Of a stretch of DNA of 44,521 nucleotides, positions 5,716-20,440 are shown piece by piece; position 1 is the first letter of the stretch; each line of letters starts with the position of its first letter. Made by a program: the position numbers and the translations under genes. Under the pieces are notes generated by a model that was given only the letters and a program-made list of their open reading frames with translations, was not told the DNA's origin and did no database searches. The DNA is from an uncultured Hungatella sp. Lineage in GTDB: Bacteria; Bacillota; Clostridia; Lachnospirales; Lachnospiraceae. Location: contig CAMTAF010000015.1 in assembly GCA_947066955.1 (NCBI GenBank), positions 1 to 44,521 on the forward strand, in the 5' to 3' direction.

Positions 5716-7857
5716 TCACACTTTCATGGTCAGGGCGATCCTCTTTTTCGCCGCGTCAACGCTGAGCACTTTCACCTCCACGATGTCCCCCACGCTGACC
5801 ACCTCCATGGGATGTTTGATGCGGCGGTCCGACATCTGGGAAATGTGCACCAGGCCATCCTGGTGGACTCCGATATCTACAAACGCGCCGAAATCAATGA
5901 CATTGCGGACCGTGCCCTTGAGGACCATGCCCGGGGTTAAGTCTTTCATATCCATCACGTCTGTGCGCAGAATCGGTTTTGGCATCTCATCCCTGGGATC
6001 CCTGGCCGGCTTCTCAAGTTCATTTACAATATCCTTGAGGGTGAGCTCTCCAATGCCCAGCTCCTGGGCCAGGCTTTTGTAGTCGTGAATCTTCTTTCCA
6101 ATGCCCTTAAGCCCTCCGGCTCCGATCTCTTCCGGCTTGCATCCAAGTTTTTTGAGGAGCTTTTCTGCCGCCTCATAGCTCTCCGGGTGGACGCTGGTGC
6201 CGTCGAGAGGATTGGACCCGCCCTGGATCCGCATAAAACCCGCGCACTGTTCATAGGCCTTTGGCCCCAGCTTGGCCACCTTGAGAAGCTGATTTCTGCT
6301 TCGGAACGCGCCGTTCTCCTCCCGGTAGGCCACGATATTCTTTGCCAGGGCCTTGCTGATGCCGGACACATACTCAAGGAGCGGGGCGGAGGCTGTGTTT
6401 AAGTCCACGCCCACCTTGTTCACGCAGTCCTCCACCACTCCCTGGAGGGCCTCCCCTAAGTGTTTCTGGTTCATGTCGTGCTGATACTGCCCCACTCCGA
6501 TGGATTTGGGATCGATCTTTACCAGCTCCGCCAGAGGGTCCTGGAGGCGCCTGGCGATGGAGGCGGCGCTCCTCTGCCCTACGTCAAAATTGGGGAACTC
6601 CTCTGTTGCCAGCTTGCTGGCAGAGTACACGGAGGCCCCTGCTTCGTTTACAATGACATACTGAACCTTTTCCGGGATCTCCTTGAGCAGCTCCACGATC
6701 ACCTGCTCCGATTCCCTGGAAGCGGTGCCGTTTCCCACGGAGATCAGGGAAATGTTGTAGCGGCGGATCAATTTTTTCAAAATCTCTTTTGCCTCAGATA
6801 CTTTATTCTGAGGCGCTGTGGGGTAGATCACCACAGTGTCCAAAACCTTTCCTGTGGCATCCACCACTGCCAGCTTGCAGCCTGTGCGGAAGGCCGGATC
6901 CCATCCCAGCACCACTTTTCCTGTAATGGGCGGCTGCATCAGAAGCTGCTGGAGATTCTTTCCGAACACCTTGACAGCGCCGTCCTCCGCCGCTTCTGTC
7001 AGCTGGCTGCGGATCTCCCTCTCTATGGCGGGAGCGATGAGGCGCTTGTAGCTGTCCTCCGCAACTGCTTTGAGCACAGGGGTGGTATAGGGGTTGTCCC
7101 TGACAATGACCTGCTTCTCCAGGTAGCGGATAATATCCTCCTCGGGGGCGCTGATCTTTACGGTGAGAATCTTCTCCTTCTCCCCCCGGTTCAGGGCCAG
7201 GATCCGGTGTCCTGCCGTTCTCTTCAGGGATTCCTCGTAATTGTAATACATCTCGTAGACCGACTCTGTCTTCTCGTCCTTGGCCGCGGACTGGATCGTC
7301 CCCTGATTCATGGTGACATTCCGGATATAGGTCCGGTACTTGGCCTCGTCGGAGATCCGCTCCGCCAGGATATCCCCGGCTCCGGCGATGGCCTCTGCCG
7401 CGTCAGACACCCCTTTCTCATCAGATACATAGGCCTGGGCCGTCTTCTCAAGAGGCTCTTTTGTCATCTGCAGGGCAATGAGATCGGCCAGAGGGCCCAG
7501 GCCCTTCTCCTGAGCAATGGTGGCCCTTGTTCTTCTCTTTGGCCGGTAGGGCCGGTATAAGTCCTCCACCGCCACCAGTGTGGCTGCCTCCAGAATCTGT
7601 TTTTCCAGCTCAGGCGTCAATTTCCCCTGATCCCGGATGGTTGACAGCACCTGCTCCTTCTTTTCCTCCAGGTTTCTTAAGTACCGGAGCCTCTCATCCA
7701 GATTTCTCAGCACCTCGTCGTTTAAGGCGCCTGTCTGCTCTTTCCGGTATCTGGCGATAAACGGGATAGTGTTGCCCTCGTCGATCAGCTTCACCGCTGC
7801 CTCCACCTGGCTCCGTCCGATATTCAGTTCCTGCTGCAATGCTTTAATAATATCCAT
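5716..7857 (-). CDS. tex: Tex family S1 RNA-binding protein
   Basis: Tex/YhgF is a conserved transcription-accessory RNA-binding protein. The 713-residue product has the expected parts: N-terminal helical domain with PFIARYRKEQTG near residue 45, the YqgF/RuvC-like domain (GWDPAFRTGCKLAVVD near 330), helix-hairpin-helix motifs (TASAPLLEYVSGI near 500), and a C-terminal S1 domain (GTVRNVIDFGAFVDIGVHQDGL near 645). Start at ATG 7857 (MDIIKALQQEL) preceded by AAGGA/AGGA; the ATG 12 codons upstream has no ribosome site. First gene of the run leading to tsaE-tsaB-rimI. Confidence 0.94.
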   Translation of the reverse strand: MDIIKALQQELNIGRSQVEAAVKLIDEGNTIPFIARYRKEQTGALNDEVLRNLDERLRYLRNLEEKKEQVLSTIRDQGKLTPELEKQILEAATLVAVEDLYRPYRPKRRTRATIAQEKGLGPLADLIALQMTKEPLEKTAQAYVSDEKGVSDAAEAIAGAGDILAERISDEAKYRTYIRNVTMNQGTIQSAAKDEKTESVYEMYYNYEESLKRTAGHRILALNRGEKEKILTVKISAPEEDIIRYLEKQVIVRDNPYTTPVLKAVAEDSYKRLIAPAIEREIRSQLTEAAEDGAVKVFGKNLQQLLMQPPITGKVVLGWDPAFRTGCKLAVVDATGKVLDTVVIYPTAPQNKVSEAKEILKKLIRRYNISLISVGNGTASRESEQVIVELLKEIPEKVQYVIVNEAGASVYSASKLATEEFPNFDVGQRSAASIARRLQDPLAELVKIDPKSIGVGQYQHDMNQKHLGEALQGVVEDCVNKVGVDLNTASAPLLEYVSGISKALAKNIVAYREENGAFRSRNQLLKVAKLGPKAYEQCAGFMRIQGGSNPLDGTSVHPESYEAAEKLLKKLGCKPEEIGAGGLKGIGKKIHDYKSLAQELGIGELTLKDIVNELEKPARDPRDEMPKPILRTDVMDMKDLTPGMVLKGTVRNVIDFGAFVDIGVHQDGLVHISQMSDRRIKHPMEVVSVGDIVEVKVLSVDAAKKRIALTMKV

Positions 7858-7911
7858 ATGTTCCTGTTCCTTTTTTTCTTGAAAGTTCCCCATCTCAGTG
7901 GACTGCTACCC

Positions 7912-7940
7912 ATTATATAGCGAAACTCTGCCTGCGTCCA
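7912..7940 (-). promoter_or_regulatory. Promoter of tex
   Basis: Minus-strand TGGACG (7940-7935), 17-nt spacer, TATAAT (7917-7912), about 55 nt before the tex ATG. The -35 matches 4 of 6 positions, the -10 all six. Confidence 0.55.
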
Positions 7941-8061
7941 GACAATTTTTGTGTTGTATCGTTTTTGTGACAAGAGGGGATTTCGTTGTTATGGATATTG
8001 AAATGTATAATTGAAAGGGAAAAGATGTAAGTTATTATTTCCGACAAAGCAAGAAGAATGC

Positions 8062-8247
8062 TTACAGATCATCCACTGTCATAACCTTTATGTCTTTAAA
8101 CCGCCTCAGCTGCTTATCTAGTGATTCTTTGCCCAGATTATAGCTGTTTATAAAAAAAGCTTTTACCTTATTCCCATATTGAGGACTCTTTTCCAAATAA
8201 TAGATATACAGGGATGTGTCTATAAAAATACGTCTAAATTCTGTCAT
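8062..8247 (-). pseudogene. PIN-domain toxin remnant with internal deletion
   Basis: Encodes 61 residues. The first 32 (FIDTSLYIYYLEKSPQYGNK) look like the N-terminal strand and helix of a VapC-type PIN ribonuclease with the first catalytic Asp. The last 20 (DKQLRRFKDIKVMTVDDL) look like the usual C-terminus. The middle, about 70-80 residues that would carry the remaining acidic catalytic residues, is absent while the frame is kept. The start overlaps the end of the antitoxin-like gene by 14 nt, the typical arrangement of a vapBC-type pair. It is probably inactive as a nuclease. Confidence 0.65.
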
Positions 8248-8452
8248 TTTTTCTTATTTCCTCCATATATTCCTCAACACATTTTCCACGTTCTGTTTCC
8301 ATGCCATATCTGTCCCAGTCAATCTTTTTTCTTCTTTTCCTATATGGATGATCAAGTATTGTTAAAATTACTTCTTTACCATCGTAATTATTTATATTGT
8401 CATTTTCGATAATTATAGTATCTCCCTGTATGGTTCCAGCTAATGCTAACAT
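8234..8452 (-). CDS. Antitoxin-like protein paired with PIN remnant
   Basis: A 72-residue protein: a short N-terminal beta-rich part (LALAGTIQGDTIII) then a basic stretch (RKRRKKIDWDRYG) and an acidic helical end. I infer an antitoxin role from size, the 14-nt overlap with the downstream PIN-type gene, and this N-terminal pattern, which is seen in small antitoxin-like proteins next to PIN toxins; I cannot name the family. ATG at 8452 has AAGGAG 9 nt upstream. The open frame to 8581 is repeat B sequence and not part of the gene. With its toxin apparently crippled, it may be a relic. Confidence 0.6.
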   Translation of the reverse strand: MLALAGTIQGDTIIIENDNINNYDGKEVILTILDHPYRKRRKKIDWDRYGMETERGKCVEEYMEEIRKNDRI

Positions 8453-8619: not shown

Positions 8620-8676
8620 CTTTTGCAGCATGCCGGCGCCTTTTTACCGGCAGCGCGCCATACTCTTATACTCTCA

Positions 8677-10431
8677 TTATTCTCCCAGAATATATTCGGC
8701 TGCTTTTGTTCCCGAGATGCGCCCAAATACGACGGCAGCGCTGTAAGCTCCGCTTGTGCTGGTGACTTCGCCTGCTGCGTAGAGCCCCTCCACGACCTCA
8801 TTGTCCGTGGTGAGCACCTGGGCATTCTCGTTGGCCAGCACGCCGCCCTTGGTCATATGGTTGGCGGCCTCCACCTTCACGCCGTAGAACGGGCCTTCCT
8901 GGTCAAATGCTCTCTTGCCTTCCGGCAGGTTGTTGTTGTACTCGTCAACAGTTGCCTGGAGCTGTTCTCCGTCAATGCCCAGGGCCTCAGCCAGCTCGCC
9001 CAAAGTCTCGCCCTGAGAATAGTAGCCCAGCCCCACATGCTTTCTGATGCGGTAGAAGGAATCATAGCCGGTCTGATCGGTGATGTAGAACACGGACCTT
9101 CCCGTCTGCTCCAGGATGGCCTTGCCTCTGTCCAGGCTACTCCCCTCGTGAACCATCAGCTGGCCCTCGGCATTGACCTCCAGGCTTAAGTCGGCTCCGC
9201 CTGTTAAGTCGCGGCGGGGAACGATGATGTTGGCGAACACGCTCATGGTGTCCATGTGGTCCAGAGCGTAGCCTCTCTCCTCAAATACTTTGACGAAATC
9301 GCCGGTTGCGCCCATCTGATTGGACGTGTTCAATACTTCATAGCCTGGAGCGTACTCGGCCAGCAGTTCCTTGTTGAAGCAGAAGCCGCCGGTGGCGATA
9401 ACCACTGCCTTGGCATTGATGTCGTATGTATTGTTCTTGTTCTGAACCTTTACTCCTGTCACTTTTCCGCTTTCATCCGCGATCAGGTCGTAGCCCTTGG
9501 TGCCTGTGCGCACATCGATGCCCAGCTCCTTCACCTTGGCCTCCATGCCGTCCAAAATCTCCTCGCCCGCATAGGCATCTGCCTCGGCCATGTGGTTGGT
9601 GCCGCCGTAGTTGTAGTTCAGCTCAACGCCGAAGCTTCTCAGCCATGCGTCCAGCTCCCACTCTCCGTCGGCCCAGGCCTGGATCCTCTCCGGTGAGTCC
9701 CAACTGGATTCCTTGCTGGCAATAAACTCCTCCTTGGTCATCTCGTTGCCGGCCTTGATCATGGCCTCTGAGTTGATCAGGTCGAAAAAGTTCATGTCAA
9801 ATTTGCCGTTGCCGCCCAAGATGTCCAGCTTCTCTACAACGATGATGTCTGTAAGGCCCGCCTCGCTGGCCGCGATCGCCGCGCTCAGGCCCGCCGGGCC
9901 TCCTCCTACGATCACCAGGTCGGTCTCCACTGCCTCCAGTTCCTTTGCCGCCTCTTCCGGGGCCGCGGTAGTCATAGTGATCTCGCCGAAATCAACTCCC
10001 GCCTCTTTCGCGGCGTCGGCCACAGCCTTCTTCACCGCATAGGAAGTAAAGGTGGCGCCTGACACGCTGTCCACGACCGGAGACTGGGCCTCCAGGATCC
10101 TCTCCTCCAACACCGGGAGCATCCTCTTTTGAACCAGGCTGGTCTCATTGCCTCCTGTGATCTCGATGCCGCTCATCTTGCCGTCTTTCACGGTGAGGGC
10201 GACTTCCACGTCCCCGCCATAGCCGGAGCCTGTGGCAGTGTATGTGCCGTCTTTTAAGCCCTCTTCCTCCTGAGGCGCCTCTGTAGCGGCCTCGGTGGTA
10301 GCTTCCGTTGCAGCCTCGGTCTGTGCCTGGGTGGTCTGCTCCGTCGGAGCCTCCGTCTCAGGAGCCTGCGCGGTTGAGCAGCCGGACAGCAGCAGTGTGC
10401 CTGCAAGCAGCAGGCTTAATGATTTCTTCAT
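8677..10431 (-). CDS. Lipoprotein flavin reductase, FMN-binding plus fumarate-reductase-like FAD domain
   Basis: A 584-residue secreted lipoprotein: signal peptide with lipobox LLSGC (C18), a Thr/Glu-rich linker (19-58), an FMN-binding domain (about 60-146) with the flavinylation motif SGAT (Thr127), and an FAD_binding_2 domain starting VIVGGGPAGLSAA (about 173-185). In this family FMN is attached to the Thr by ApbE, and the FAD domain reduces an unsaturated organic acid outside the membrane. An Arg (SLDRGKAIL) and a His (NHMTKGGV) sit where fumarate-reductase-like enzymes have catalytic residues. Start ATG 10431, AAGGAGG 7 nt upstream, perfect-35 promoter at 10466-10494. The substrate (fumarate, urocanate, a cinnamate or other) cannot be read from sequence. 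No apbE gene is present in the window. Confidence 0.88.
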   Translation of the reverse strand: MKKSLSLLLAGTLLLSGCSTAQAPETEAPTEQTTQAQTEAATEATTEAATEAPQEEEGLKDGTYTATGSGYGGDVEVALTVKDGKMSGIEITGGNETSLVQKRMLPVLEERILEAQSPVVDSVSGATFTSYAVKKAVADAAKEAGVDFGEITMTTAAPEEAAKELEAVETDLVIVGGGPAGLSAAIAASEAGLTDIIVVEKLDILGGNGKFDMNFFDLINSEAMIKAGNEMTKEEFIASKESSWDSPERIQAWADGEWELDAWLRSFGVELNYNYGGTNHMAEADAYAGEEILDGMEAKVKELGIDVRTGTKGYDLIADESGKVTGVKVQNKNNTYDINAKAVVIATGGFCFNKELLAEYAPGYEVLNTSNQMGATGDFVKVFEERGYALDHMDTMSVFANIIVPRRDLTGGADLSLEVNAEGQLMVHEGSSLDRGKAILEQTGRSVFYITDQTGYDSFYRIRKHVGLGYYSQGETLGELAEALGIDGEQLQATVDEYNNNLPEGKRAFDQEGPFYGVKVEAANHMTKGGVLANENAQVLTTDNEVVEGLYAAGEVTSTSGAYSAAVVFGRISGTKAAEYILGE

Positions 10432-14869: not shown

Positions 14870-17443
<2,574 letters not shown>

Positions 17444-17522: not shown

Positions 17523-17627
17523 CTGATTCTCCGGTTATTAACAAAAAATTCATTTTCCAGGATTGCATATCCTTCCCTCCCCGGGCAAACTCAGCAGTTT
17601 TCACAAAAATTTTGTTCGCTCCCACCC

Positions 17628-17776
17628 TTGTCCACATTATCCACAGTGGAAAATCCACAGAATTTCTCCAAAGTTATCCACAGCAAAAAACCGTTGATTT
17701 TCAGCAAAAAGTAGTTATGCACAAAGTTATCCACATTATCCACATGCTTCCCCGCCCATTTTTCCCCCTGTCCACA
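17628..17776 (+). other. DnaA-box cluster in the secA-hpf intergenic region
   Basis: Five perfect TTATNCACA sites in the same orientation: TTATCCACA at 17637, 17674, 17727 and 17736, and TTATGCACA at 17715, the last three within 30 bp. Related sites are TTGTCCACA (17628), AAATCCACA (17651) and CTGTCCACA (17768). That is eight sites in 150 bp. TTATCCACA is the consensus DnaA box. No dnaA, dnaN or rpmH lies nearby, and gene strands do not switch here, so an extra-oriC DnaA-binding locus is more likely than the origin itself. Confidence 0.7.
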
Positions 17777-17839
17777 TGGCTTTTCTGCCCCCTGTTTTTT
17801 GTTCAGAACTCATAAACTTCTCTTTTTCGACAAGTTTTT

Positions 17840-17922
17840 AGAGGAGGAAGGCAAACGCGCAAGCGTTTCTCAGGATGCCTTCCGACAACCTGGCAGGTGA
17901 CGCGCAGCGGCGCGTTCCGTTA
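17840..17922 (-). repeat. Dispersed repeat A, copy 3 (inverted)
   Basis: Reads in reverse: GGAGGAAGGCAAACGCG, CTCAGGATGCCTTCC, CCTGGCAGG, then a GCGC-rich hairpin. It lies between the DnaA-box cluster and the hpf promoter. Confidence 0.8.
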
Positions 17923-17996
17923 CAAAATAGAAGGGGAAAGTCGATGAATTTCAGGTATAATTTTATGTAATTGTCAAAATATTATTCCGAATCTGA

Positions 17997-18025
17997 TTGA
18001 GTTTTTCGACTTTCTATGGTATACT
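17997..18025 (+). promoter_or_regulatory. Sigma-A promoter of hpf
   Basis: TTGAGT (17997-18002), 17-nt spacer, TATACT (18020-18025), 30 nt before the hpf ATG. Confidence 0.75.
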
Positions 18026-18055: not shown

Positions 18056-18586
18056 ATGCGTTACACCATCACAGGAAGAAATATTGAGGTAACCACGGGA
18101 TTGAGGGAGGCGGTTCAGGACAAGCTGGGTAAGCTTGAGAAGTACTTCAGCCCGGATACAGAAGTGATCGTTACTCTGAGCATTCAGAGGGAACTGCAGA
18201 AGATCGAGGTGACGATTCCCGTAAAGGGCAGCATCATCCGCGCCGAGGAAGCCAGCACTGATATGTATGTTTCCATTGACCTGGTGGAAGAGATCATAGA
18301 GCGTCAGATCAAAAAGTACAGAAGAAAACTTATCGACAGAAAGCAGTCCGCCCAGGCCTTCTCCGCGCTGTTTATGGAGGAAGACGAGGAAATCCATGAT
18401 GAGGAGATCCACATCGAGAAGACGAAACATTTCGATATGAAGCCCATGTATCCTGAAGACGCCTGCCTGGAGATGGAACTTCTGGGACATAATTTCTACA
18501 TGTTCCTCAACGCTGAGACCGACCAGATGAGCGTGGTCTATAAGAGGAAGGGCAATACCTACGGATTGATCGAGCCGGAGATGTAG
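18056..18586 (+). CDS. hpf: Ribosome hibernation-promoting factor, long form
   Basis: Binds the 30S subunit and dimerises 70S ribosomes into inactive 100S particles in stationary phase. The 176-residue protein has the N-terminal S30AE domain (MRYTITGRNIEVT, about 1-100), a charged linker (about 110-122) and the C-terminal dimerisation domain (KHFDMKPMYPEDACLEMELLGHNFYMF) found only in long HPF. ATG 18056 has AAGGAG 8 nt upstream. It is the lone plus-strand gene between long minus-strand runs, with its own promoter and terminator, and lies next to secA as in many Firmicutes. Confidence 0.95.
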   Translation: MRYTITGRNIEVTTGLREAVQDKLGKLEKYFSPDTEVIVTLSIQRELQKIEVTIPVKGSIIRAEEASTDMYVSIDLVEEIIERQIKKYRRKLIDRKQSAQAFSALFMEEDEEIHDEEIHIEKTKHFDMKPMYPEDACLEMELLGHNFYMFLNAETDQMSVVYKRKGNTYGLIEPEM

Positions 18587-18639: not shown

Positions 18640-18674
18640 ACCCCCGCTGCCTGTGTGGCAGACGGGGGTTTTTC
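18640..18674 (+). terminator. Terminator of hpf
   Basis: ACCCCCG/CGGGGGT and CTGCC/GGCAG stems separated by one bulged A, loop TGTGT, then TTTT. It reaches the last base of the convergent macrodomain gene, so it may work in both directions. Confidence 0.85.
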
Positions 18675-19458
18675 AGCCAAGTATTTTTCTATAAATCCCA
18701 AGATCCTCATCCTTAAACACATTGAAGATCACCTTCATCCTGCTTCCCGTCTCCCTCTTGTACCCCCTCACTGTCTCCACGGCGATCTCGGCTGCCAGCT
18801 CGCCTGGAAAATGGAATTCTCCTGTGGAGATGCAGCAAAATGCCAGGCTCTCCAGATGATTCTCCTGGGCCAGCTCCAGGCAGGAGAGGTAACAGGAGGC
18901 CAGAAGCTTCTCGTCTTCTCTGGTCACTTTTCCTGAAATGATAGGGCCGACGGTGTGGATCACATACTGACACGGCAGGTTAAAAGCCGGCGTGATCTTC
19001 GCCCTCCCCGTCTCCTCCTCATACCCCTGCTGCTCCATCAGCCGGGCGCAGGCCAGGCGGAGCTGCATCCCGGAAAAGGTGTGGATACAGTTGTCGATAC
19101 AGCCGTGACATGGTGCATAGCACCCGGTCATCCCGCTGTTGGCGGCATTGACGATGGCGCCGCACCGCAGTGTGGTGATGTCCCCCTGCCACAGGAAGAT
19201 CCCCTCCTCCACAGGCTCCAGCTCCCTGACATCGGTGATCCCCTTTTTCTCTGTCTCTTTCTTAAGGTAGGCATCCTGCACCTTCAGAAATTCTTCTCCT
19301 ATAACCCCGGGCAGCCGGATATTCATGAGGGAGCGCAAAAGCTGTCTCTGTTCCTGCTGCCCCTTGGGTATCTCCAGCTTCCTCAGACGCGGCTGTTCCT
19401 TCAAAAGTTCATTTATGAGAAAACAGCGGCGCTGTTCCTGATCCATCTCCTTCTCCAT
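18673..19458 (-). CDS. Zinc-containing macrodomain protein-ADP-ribose hydrolase
   Basis: A 261-residue protein with an N-terminal helical extension (about 1-80) and a macro domain (about 85-260). The motif VNAANSGMTGCYAPCHGCIDNCIHTFSG combines the ADP-ribose-binding loop with the Cys/His zinc site of the zinc-dependent macrodomain group, whose members remove mono-ADP-ribose from proteins. HTVGPIISG and FCCISTGEFHFP are the other ligand loops. ATG 19458 has AAGGAG 6 nt upstream; an in-frame ATG at 19446 is less well placed. In other bacteria relatives sit next to a sirtuin ADP-ribosyltransferase, which is not present here. Confidence 0.9.
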   Translation of the reverse strand: MEKEMDQEQRRCFLINELLKEQPRLRKLEIPKGQQEQRQLLRSLMNIRLPGVIGEEFLKVQDAYLKKETEKKGITDVRELEPVEEGIFLWQGDITTLRCGAIVNAANSGMTGCYAPCHGCIDNCIHTFSGMQLRLACARLMEQQGYEEETGRAKITPAFNLPCQYVIHTVGPIISGKVTREDEKLLASCYLSCLELAQENHLESLAFCCISTGEFHFPGELAAEIAVETVRGYKRETGSRMKVIFNVFKDEDLGIYRKILG

Positions 19459-19615: not shown

Positions 19616-20440
19616 TTATGCAGTTCGTTCTGCGTTCAATTTCTTTACTTCGTCAAGAGGAAGTCCGGCGTATTCCGCAATTTTCTCAAGTGTCAACATT
19701 CCATCTGCCAACATTCTTTTGGCAGCCTCTTTTAAGGATTCATTTCTCATATCTTCCATCACTTTACACATTTCTTGAACTCCTTTCGGATTTTCTTTCA
19801 GATATCTTGTTCGTTCTGCCATCAGTTCAAAGTTCATATCATCTGCCTGGGTACAGTTAAAATCATGCATAAGTTTTCCCATATCCGATTCTCCACGGTA
19901 TTCACCATTTACATAAAGGATATGCTCCCCATCTTCAAAGGATTTACCCGTTGCAAGATTGATTCTCTCAATCGGATAACCTGCTTTTCCCTGACCATAA
20001 AAATCTTTTTCGATGATAAAGATTATATATGTATCCGGCAATTCTTTAAATTCCTGACCAGAATGGAGATTTTCTATATCCATCACACTGGAATGGTATC
20101 TTGCCCTGTGTGGATCTGCTCCCTTATCCTGCCTCTGAACTTCCAGATCATATTTCTTTCCAGTTGAATCCGTTCCATATGCATCCAAGCAGATAGAACG
20201 CGCGCCTGCCAGTCTTTTCATATCTTTCTGTGTTTCACAATCAGTGATAATTAAATCCTGTTTATCCGTAATAATGCGCAACACAAATTCAGCCAGTGGA
20301 ATATTATCTTTAAAAAGACAACGCATGAAATCATCATCGATTGGCCGTAATCCCCGTAAACGCTGCAAATCCTCCTGATGCTGCTGTTCTGTCACTGTCA
20401 ATCTCCCCACCTGCTTTCCCTTTCGTTTTCGTATCTCCAT
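19616..20440 (-). CDS. PD-(D/E)XK nuclease family transposase-like (Rpn-type) protein
   Basis: A 274-residue protein of the recombination-promoting-nuclease/PD-(D/E)XK transposase-like family common in Clostridia. The core has FMRCLFKDNIPLAEFVL, then LDAYGTDSTGKKYDLEVQRQD with the D-ExQ catalytic pattern (about 85-103), RYHSSVMDI and LPDTYIIFI. A C-terminal helical part ends with KIAEYAGLPLDEVKKL. ATG 20440 has a weak upstream site (AGGAAAG). It is bracketed by two identical 48-bp hairpins and repeat B, hinting at past movement, but it lacks target duplications that I can define. Confidence 0.8.
   Translation of the reverse strand: MEIRKRKGKQVGRLTVTEQQHQEDLQRLRGLRPIDDDFMRCLFKDNIPLAEFVLRIITDKQDLIITDCETQKDMKRLAGARSICLDAYGTDSTGKKYDLEVQRQDKGADPHRARYHSSVMDIENLHSGQEFKELPDTYIIFIIEKDFYGQGKAGYPIERINLATGKSFEDGEHILYVNGEYRGESDMGKLMHDFNCTQADDMNFELMAERTRYLKENPKGVQEMCKVMEDMRNESLKEAAKRMLADGMLTLEKIAEYAGLPLDEVKKLNAERTA

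What the first reader, a model, noticed from the sequence alone, without database searches (positions are those of the whole stretch)
17628..17776. Cluster of DnaA boxes between secA and hpf, apparently away from the origin
Five perfect TTATNCACA sites (17637, 17674, 17715, 17727, 17736) and three near matches lie in 150 bp, all in one orientation, two perfect ones directly abutting. That is far denser than chance in a region of ordinary composition, and matches the density of a replication origin. No dnaA, dnaN, rpmH or gyrB is nearby and genes on both sides are largely on the same strand. It could be a DnaA-titration or DnaA-reactivation locus (in the way datA and DARS work in E. coli), a DnaA-controlled promoter for hpf or secA, or a second origin. 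A link between DnaA and ribosome hibernation or secretion would be new to me.
Basis: partly seen in the sequence, partly recalled or inferred. Interest (0 to 1): 0.75.

Follow-up and report, generated by a model that had tools for sequence, protein, structure and literature searches.

The report
Conserved DnaA-binding site beside hpf
Between the genes secA and hpf of a bacterium related to Hungatella lies a tight row of binding sites for DnaA, the protein that starts chromosome copying; the same row, usually once per genome, turns up in about a fifth of the related bacteria sampled, so it is most likely a dedicated site that holds DnaA and restrains replication, not a second origin.

Summary
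Five perfect DnaA boxes and one near box lie head to tail in 117 bp between secA and hpf; chance would give this about 1e-7 times per genome. It is not an origin: GC skew does not turn, no DnaA-trio was found, and an oriC-like cluster lies at dnaA. The core is three boxes (starts 0, 12, 21) with a fourth 41 bp upstream. Among 138 copies of this triple, 112 have a fourth box about 31 or 41 bp upstream, one helical turn apart.

The triple occurs in 82 of 392 genomes of the order, nearly always once, and more sparsely across the phylum. It precedes hpf at 61 of 85 places but follows the locus rather than the hpf promoter: distances vary, transporter genes can intervene, and some lineages carry it elsewhere, several at the 3' end of tsaD/gcp, the address of a known Bacillus subtilis DnaA-box cluster.

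Best explanation: a titration cluster of the B. subtilis type that holds DnaA and delays initiation. DnaA control of hpf is a weaker rival. Binding and phenotype were not testable here, and reviews differ on how much such clusters matter.

The parts
17628..17645 (+). Near box TTGTCCACA abutting perfect box TTATCCACA (17637)
   Evidence: box columns conserved
17674..17682 (+). Perfect DnaA box TTATCCACA, 41 bp upstream of the triple (fourth box)
   Evidence: 112 of 138 copies of the triple have a fourth box at 30-33 or 40-42 bp
17715..17744 (+). Triple: boxes at 17715, 17727, 17736 (starts 0, 12, 21)
   Evidence: 85 places in 82 of 392 genomes of the order, 0 in the reversed control
17839..17928 (+). 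GA-cis (RF02987) repeat copy between boxes and hpf promoter; absent in the aligned relatives; not part of the module
   Evidence: 34.3 bits, just under gathering 34.7; 125 matches in the genome; gap in relatives
17997..18025 (+). Likely hpf promoter TTGAGT-17-TATACT with TG extension
   Evidence: a like site at -59/-60 in all 19 genus relatives with hpf
18056..18586 (+). hpf, ribosome hibernation-promoting factor (176 aa)
   Evidence: TIGR00741, 85.1 bits
14870..17443 (-). secA, preprotein translocase subunit (857 aa), divergent from hpf here
   Evidence: TIGR00963/NF009538

Best explanation
The cluster is a chromosomal DnaA-sequestering site, a DnaA-box cluster (DBC) of the kind known in Bacillus subtilis. 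DnaA binds the head-to-tail boxes cooperatively; the 0/12/21 triple plus a fourth box on the same helical face suggests one defined DnaA oligomer. Because no DnaA-trio or unwinding element was found beside it, the oligomer would not open the DNA; it would hold DnaA away from oriC and so delay initiation. Shown here: the boxes, their conservation, the favoured place of the fourth box, near-single copy, and different addresses in different lineages. Inferred: DnaA binding, oligomer shape, effect on initiation timing.
For: Box columns are 98.7% identical pairwise among near relatives, against 67.8% for the other intergenic columns compared. The triple is in 82 of 392 genomes of the order, once in 79 and twice in 3, with 0 in reversed controls. 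A fourth box, not asked for in the search, lies 30-33 bp (60), 40-42 bp (51) or both (1) upstream in 112 of 138 copies; shuffled upstream sequence gave 6 boxes at any distance, against 155. The triple follows the locus, not one gene: zinc-ribbon - [triple] - (amino-acid ABC transporter genes) - hpf - secA - prfB, with a comF-like gene upstream in G655; transporter genes lie between it and hpf in G417, G655 and G1011 but not in G1122, of the same genus as G1011. At 6 of 17 places of the phylum search it sits beyond the tsaD/gcp stop codon (tsaD shown by family in three, by tblastn in a fourth, by eye in two). That is the address of a strong B. subtilis DnaA-binding region (10 sites, Kd 0.15 uM with ATP; PMC4447404 section 8). 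Deleting six B. subtilis clusters causes early initiation, and one cluster put back at various places partly relieves it (PMC5295017 passage); another paper calls their role inhibitory, by sequestering DnaA (PMC11019786 passage).
Against: No DnaA-binding or phenotype data exist for this element. The 0/12/21 spacing was itself the search pattern, so its recurrence in the hits is by construction; the independent signs are the fourth box, the recurring addresses, and four hpf loci of other lineages where the spacing was seen before the search. 310 of 392 genomes of the order lack the triple by this pattern. At 61 of 85 places it precedes hpf in hpf's own orientation, as a regulatory site would. 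One review says the B. [quoted passage not shown] subtilis (PMC13220808 passage); both weaken the step from binding to timing. Whether the B. subtilis gcp cluster has the same geometry could not be checked.
Confidence: 0.55

Rival explanations
1. DnaA-controlled hpf promoter: DnaA bound upstream activates or represses hpf, linking replication status to ribosome hibernation, in the way DnaA controls sda in B. subtilis.
For: Triple upstream of hpf, same orientation, at 61 of 85 places in 8 families and 29 genera of the order, in 5 further families of the class and in 2 genomes beyond the class. An hpf promoter is conserved in the genus. The boxes stay with hpf when secA is not adjacent.
Against: The gap from triple to hpf start varies from 123 bp (G1122) to about 660 bp (G756), including a 90-bp repeat inserted in the window. 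Transporter or other genes intervene, with hpf 2.8 to 10.8 kb away, in G417, G655, G1011 and G025. In other lineages the triple lies beside tsaD, galK or ntpD.
Confidence: 0.2
2. A nucleotide-switch site for DnaA: like datA it promotes hydrolysis of DnaA-ATP, or like DARS it reloads DnaA, rather than only holding it.
For: One-directional boxes with a favoured spacing resemble datA, whose essential boxes share one direction (PMC5742627 passage). About one copy per genome. In six genomes with long contigs it lies 10-19% of the genome from dnaA although the local address differs (places and contig lengths; sums).
Against: The DARS core needs box I opposed to II and III: not met. datA and DARS2 work with IHF, and B. 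subtilis lacks IHF homologues (PMC13220808 passage); IHF was not searched for here. The position argument rests on six genomes of four genera, takes long contigs as circular, and was made after the fact.
Confidence: 0.12
3. A second or back-up replication origin.
For: Box density like that of oriC; in one genome (G602) the same triple forms part of oriC between dnaA and a dnaN-like frame.
Against: No turn of GC skew in the 44.5-kb window; no run of two or more TAY in 17600-17900; oriC-like cluster upstream of dnaA in this genome and box clusters on both sides of dnaA in relatives.
Confidence: 0.03
4. Regulation of secA, or chance clustering.
For: secA starts 185 bp from the first box in the window.
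Against: secA is not adjacent in several genus members that keep the boxes, and lies downstream of hpf in other families; chance is excluded.
Confidence: 0.03

Closest known systems
Bacillus subtilis DnaA-box clusters outside oriC (six DBCs; strong in vitro regions include gcp/ydiF, ywlC, yqeG-sda)
   Same: Multi-box cluster outside oriC; the same triple sits at the tsaD/gcp 3' end at 6 of 17 places of the phylum search.
   Different: Here usually one triple per genome, mostly at the hpf locus; B. subtilis has six clusters, and hpf (yvyD) is not among the top 20 in vitro regions nor named in that paper. Geometry of the B. subtilis clusters not compared.
E. coli datA
   Same: Boxes in one direction, set spacing, away from oriC.
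   Different: datA works with IHF; hydrolysis not tested here.
E. coli DARS1/DARS2
   Same: Core of three DnaA boxes with conserved spacing.
   Different: DARS box I faces boxes II and III; here all boxes point the same way.
Boxes of oriC between dnaA and dnaN
   Same: Head-to-tail boxes; the triple is part of oriC in G602.
   Different: No DnaA-trio found at the hpf site.

Membership tests
B. subtilis-type DnaA-box cluster (DBC) | Dense group of DnaA boxes outside oriC | tested here: met
B. subtilis-type DnaA-box cluster (DBC) | Boxes under selection (supporting rather than defining) | tested here: met
   boxes 98.7%, other intergenic columns 67.8%
B. subtilis-type DnaA-box cluster (DBC) | Binds DnaA with high affinity | not testable with these tools
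   needs ChIP-seq, IDAP-seq or gel shift
B. subtilis-type DnaA-box cluster (DBC) | Removal makes initiation early; works from various positions | not testable with these tools
   different addresses in different lineages only hint at position tolerance
DARS | Three-box core with box I opposed to II and III | tested here: not met
   all boxes + strand; definition from PMC5742627 passage
datA | Essential boxes in one direction with set spacing | tested here: met
   definition
datA | IHF site and IHF-aided DnaA-ATP hydrolysis | not tested
   IHF not searched for in this genome; B. subtilis lacks it
Replication origin (oriC) | GC-skew turn at the site | tested here: not met
Replication origin (oriC) | DnaA-trio beside the boxes | tested here: not met
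   no run of two or more TAY in 17600-17900, either strand
DnaA-regulated promoter (sda type) | Boxes at a fixed place relative to one promoter (my criterion) | tested here: not met
   gap to hpf 123 to about 660 bp; intervening genes in four genomes
DnaA-regulated promoter (sda type) | Expression of the gene depends on DnaA | not testable with these tools
   needs RNA measurements

The most novel reading that the evidence does not exclude
The module is the Bacillota counterpart of datA: a nearly single-copy control site, kept over very long evolutionary times at two main addresses (zinc-ribbon-hpf-secA and tsaD/gcp) and at a set distance from oriC. On it a DnaA oligomer of set geometry forms and changes DnaA's nucleotide state or availability. 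It may also be read out by hpf, tying replication control to ribosome hibernation in many of the lineages that carry it.
Probability: 0.2. Interest if true: 0.85.

Novelty: new member of a known kind. Interest (0 to 1): 0.6.

Why it matters
A 2026 review states that datA and DARS are absent from B. subtilis and that it is unknown whether it has regulators that balance DnaA-ADP and DnaA-ATP (PMC13220808 passage). A DnaA-box module with a favoured geometry, about one copy per genome and recurring addresses in many families of the phylum would turn that into a concrete experiment on a 71-bp DNA. It would also give an annotation rule for candidate replication-control sites in Lachnospiraceae and relatives.

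Tried and rejected
Second origin: rejected by GC skew, no trio found, and the cluster at dnaA. The dnaN gene could not be found in this draft genome, so the dnaA-dnaN interval was read in relatives only. secA control: rejected because the boxes track hpf. DARS: rejected by box orientation. Fixed-distance promoter control of hpf: not supported. GA-cis as a regulator of hpf: it has 125 matches in the genome and is missing in the aligned relatives.

Limits of the searches: the strict pattern misses variants that the looser pattern finds (G117 for one), and even the looser one misses a one-mismatch copy in G065, so the tallies are low. Twelve genomes without the triple were checked for any box pair: 6 have a pair between murC and dnaD, 2 have no pair, the other 4 have scattered pairs only (G065's being that one-mismatch copy). 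The (TAY)3 trio test is not fully sensitive: it found nothing in 3 of 14 oriC control stretches (L309, L315, L317), two of which show a trio to the eye. In one search the G037 row was given on the wrong strand; I do not use that alignment.

Literature: in the searches I saw no title or abstract start that links DnaA boxes to hpf or describes this module. Eight papers hold both DnaA and hibernation promoting factor; I did not open them. The library lacks most subscription papers; Okumura 2012 was not held and is known to me here only through reviews. GA-cis gave no paper. Papers seen: passages of PMC4447404 (and its section 8 in full), PMC5295017, PMC5742627, PMC7561715, PMC8203912, PMC11019786, PMC13220808 and PMC5010248; of all others only search listings.

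Full report
WHAT IS THERE. The intergenic region between secA (14870-17443, -) and hpf (18056-18586, +) holds five perfect DnaA boxes at 17637, 17674, 17715, 17727 and 17736 and a one-mismatch box at 17628, all on the + strand. The window has 10 perfect boxes against 0.85 expected; the largest of 100 shuffles had 4. The genome (4.22 Mb, 240 contigs) has 190 perfect boxes against 68 for the reversed pattern. Five in 108 bp is expected about 1e-7 times per genome. Head-to-tail pairs within 30 bp occur at two loci of this genome: here and on contig C1.

NOT AN ORIGIN. Cumulative GC skew falls through the window except for a small local rise over hpf. The dnaA gene lies on contig C171, with mnmE, jag, yidC, rnpA and rpmH on the other side (names by my reading of the translations) and a box cluster just upstream of dnaA: three perfect boxes and several near ones. 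In relatives I read 13 stretches with dnaA (of 14 fetched): each has box clusters around dnaA, and in 8 of 13 the dnaA-dnaN interval shows a CTACTAC- or TTACTAC-type trio; four have a variant and one interval was cut before it (by eye; trio concept from passages of PMC7561715). In the window no run of two or more TAY exists at 17600-17900 on either strand.

A MODULE WITH A FAVOURED GEOMETRY. In the window the three rightmost boxes start at 0, 12 and 21, and another lies 41 bp upstream. I saw the same numbers, perfect or nearly, in hpf loci of G037 and G027 and of Lachnospira sp. SIG291 and Anaerobium acetethylicum, and then searched for the triple. With some freedom in each box it occurs in 82 of 392 genomes drawn from the order, at 85 places, with none for the reversed pattern. 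79 genomes have one copy and 3 have two; in two of those three (G342, G353) the extra copy lies at a murC-dnaD junction (by eye, and close to the helicase-loader match). The spacing of the triple is the search criterion, so it proves nothing by itself; the fourth box was not asked for. Of 138 distinct copies from the three searches and the genus loci (the oriC copy and a few likely chance hits included), 60 have a fourth box at 30-33 bp, 51 at 40-42 bp, 1 at both, 10 elsewhere within 80 bp and 16 none. Shuffled upstream sequence gave 6 boxes in all, against 155. The two favoured distances differ by one helical turn, so the box keeps its face of the helix. Only 1 of 138 copies has a (TAY)3 run within 60 bp downstream, and it is the oriC of G602; but this test missed 3 of 14 oriC control stretches, so it is not fully sensitive.

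CONSERVATION. Of 24 genus relatives, 19 gave an hpf match, and all 19 carry the triple upstream of hpf. In an alignment of the window with seven rows of the nearest subclade (L042 and L123 read the same, so six distinct relatives; the more diverged genus members and one short contig were left out), box columns are 98.7% identical pairwise, the hpf promoter 90.5% and the other intergenic columns compared 67.8%. Of 15 genomes of other families of the order with an hpf match, 5 (G037, G027, G040, G026, G034) have two or more perfect boxes within 600 bp upstream; two more could not be judged because the contig ends there. In the named collection, 22 of 59 hpf loci have at least one perfect box within the 1 kb (or less) held upstream: Hungatella-like and other Lachnospiraceae genomes, Lachnospira sp. 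SIG291 and Anaerobium acetethylicum. The other 37 have none.

WHERE IT SITS. In the order (85 places), hpf lies downstream in the same orientation at 61, in 8 families and 29 genera (families and genera counted by hand). The other 24: five of family f2 upstream of an amino-acid ABC substrate-binding gene; eight of genera g29 and g41 beside ntpD or galK; two at murC-dnaD; one cut off by a contig end (G129); eight at assorted places, some probably chance. In the class search the strict pattern is in 25 of 391 genomes: the window, 5 with hpf in five more families, 7 with a substrate-binding gene next plus G489 with one at +736, one oriC, and 11 others. In the phylum search it is in 17 of 398: the window and G038 again, 2 with hpf, 1 with the substrate-binding gene, 6 at the tsaD 3' end and 6 others. 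Family tests of neighbours: substrate-binding genes of G655, G050 and G1011, ntpD and galK, tsaD in three and by tblastn in G898; the rest by eye. The g29 and g41 loci that I read more fully share a FabT-like MarR gene and a DUF885 gene (family-tested in G353; by eye in G307), so they look like one address.

SYNTENY. The order zinc-ribbon - [triple] - transporter gene(s) - hpf - secA - prfB is seen in G417, G655 (with a comF-like gene upstream) and G1011, and the same without the transporter in G1122, which is in the same genus as G1011. In G025 hpf is 10.8 kb downstream, in G050 75 kb away, and in G489 none was found in the 15.7 kb read. So the triple belongs to the locus and not to the hpf promoter.

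POSITION. In six genomes with long contigs, taken as circular where needed, the triple lies 9.7, 12.6, 15.0, 15.7, 19.0 and 19.4% of the genome from dnaA, although the local address differs. These are four genera and the comparison was made after seeing the data, so it is a lead only. It recalls the conserved oriC distances of datA and DARS in E. coli (PMC5010248 passages).

HOW IT MOST LIKELY WORKS. B. subtilis has six DnaA-box clusters outside oriC. Removing all six makes initiation early, and one put back at various places partly relieves this (PMC5295017 passage; PMC13220808 passage; the original paper was not held). [quoted passage not shown] The present triple is found at the tsaD/gcp 3' end in other lineages and at the hpf locus in Lachnospiraceae and relatives. 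The simplest account is that it is such a cluster: a place where DnaA forms a head-to-tail oligomer that cannot open the DNA, lowering free DnaA and delaying initiation. DnaA binding and the effect on timing are inferred. Against the last step, one review says the B. subtilis clusters play no significant role in initiation, and another that tenfold more DnaA did not cause over-initiation there.

RIVALS. DnaA control of hpf remains possible, because hpf is the most frequent neighbour and a promoter TTGAAT-17-TGnTATACT is conserved in the genus. Against it are a gap that varies from 123 to about 660 bp, the 90-bp GA-cis repeat inserted in the window, intervening genes, and other addresses. A datA-like action would fit the one-directional boxes. 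DARS does not fit, because its box I faces the others (PMC5742627 passage).

LIMITS. No binding or expression data. Most genomes of the order (310 of 392) lack the triple by this pattern, though the pattern misses some copies. The geometry of the B. subtilis clusters could not be read here.

Noticed in passing
G000 contig C1:113489-113669 (L034:8489-8669, between murC 8671-10056 - and a DnaD-domain gene 7095-8405 -, followed by a helicase-loader-like gene 6104-7084 -): A second DnaA-box cluster: two abutting perfect pairs at the murC-dnaD junction, upstream of a dnaD-helicase loader pair. Pairs lie near the loader in G003 and G037 too, in G342 and G353, and between murC and dnaD in 6 of 12 genomes without the triple. 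DnaA may control its own helicase-loading partners.
   Followed up: partly
window 17839-17928 and genome-wide: GA-cis (RF02987), listed in Rfam as an RNA gene family, has at least 125 matches in this genome (120 over the gathering score; 150 of 409 candidates were scored), often in tandem pairs or triples; it behaves as a dispersed repeat.
   Followed up: partly
L035:4825-5172 (G000 contig C44): Three perfect and several near DnaA boxes in 350 bp, in both orientations, within an RluA-like pseudouridine synthase reading frame.
   Followed up: no
downstream of the triple in genera g29, g41, g72 (L231, L232, L234-L238, L240, L243): A shared element with TTTACATA followed by a short AAAC or AAAGAAC motif, about 20-45 bp after the last box; role unknown (by eye).
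   Followed up: no
window 19616-20440 (-) and 18673-19458 (-): An Rpn-family nuclease/transposase-like gene (just under cut-off) next to a macrodomain ADP-ribose hydrolase. A macrodomain gene also lies upstream of the triple in many family f17 genomes.
   Followed up: no
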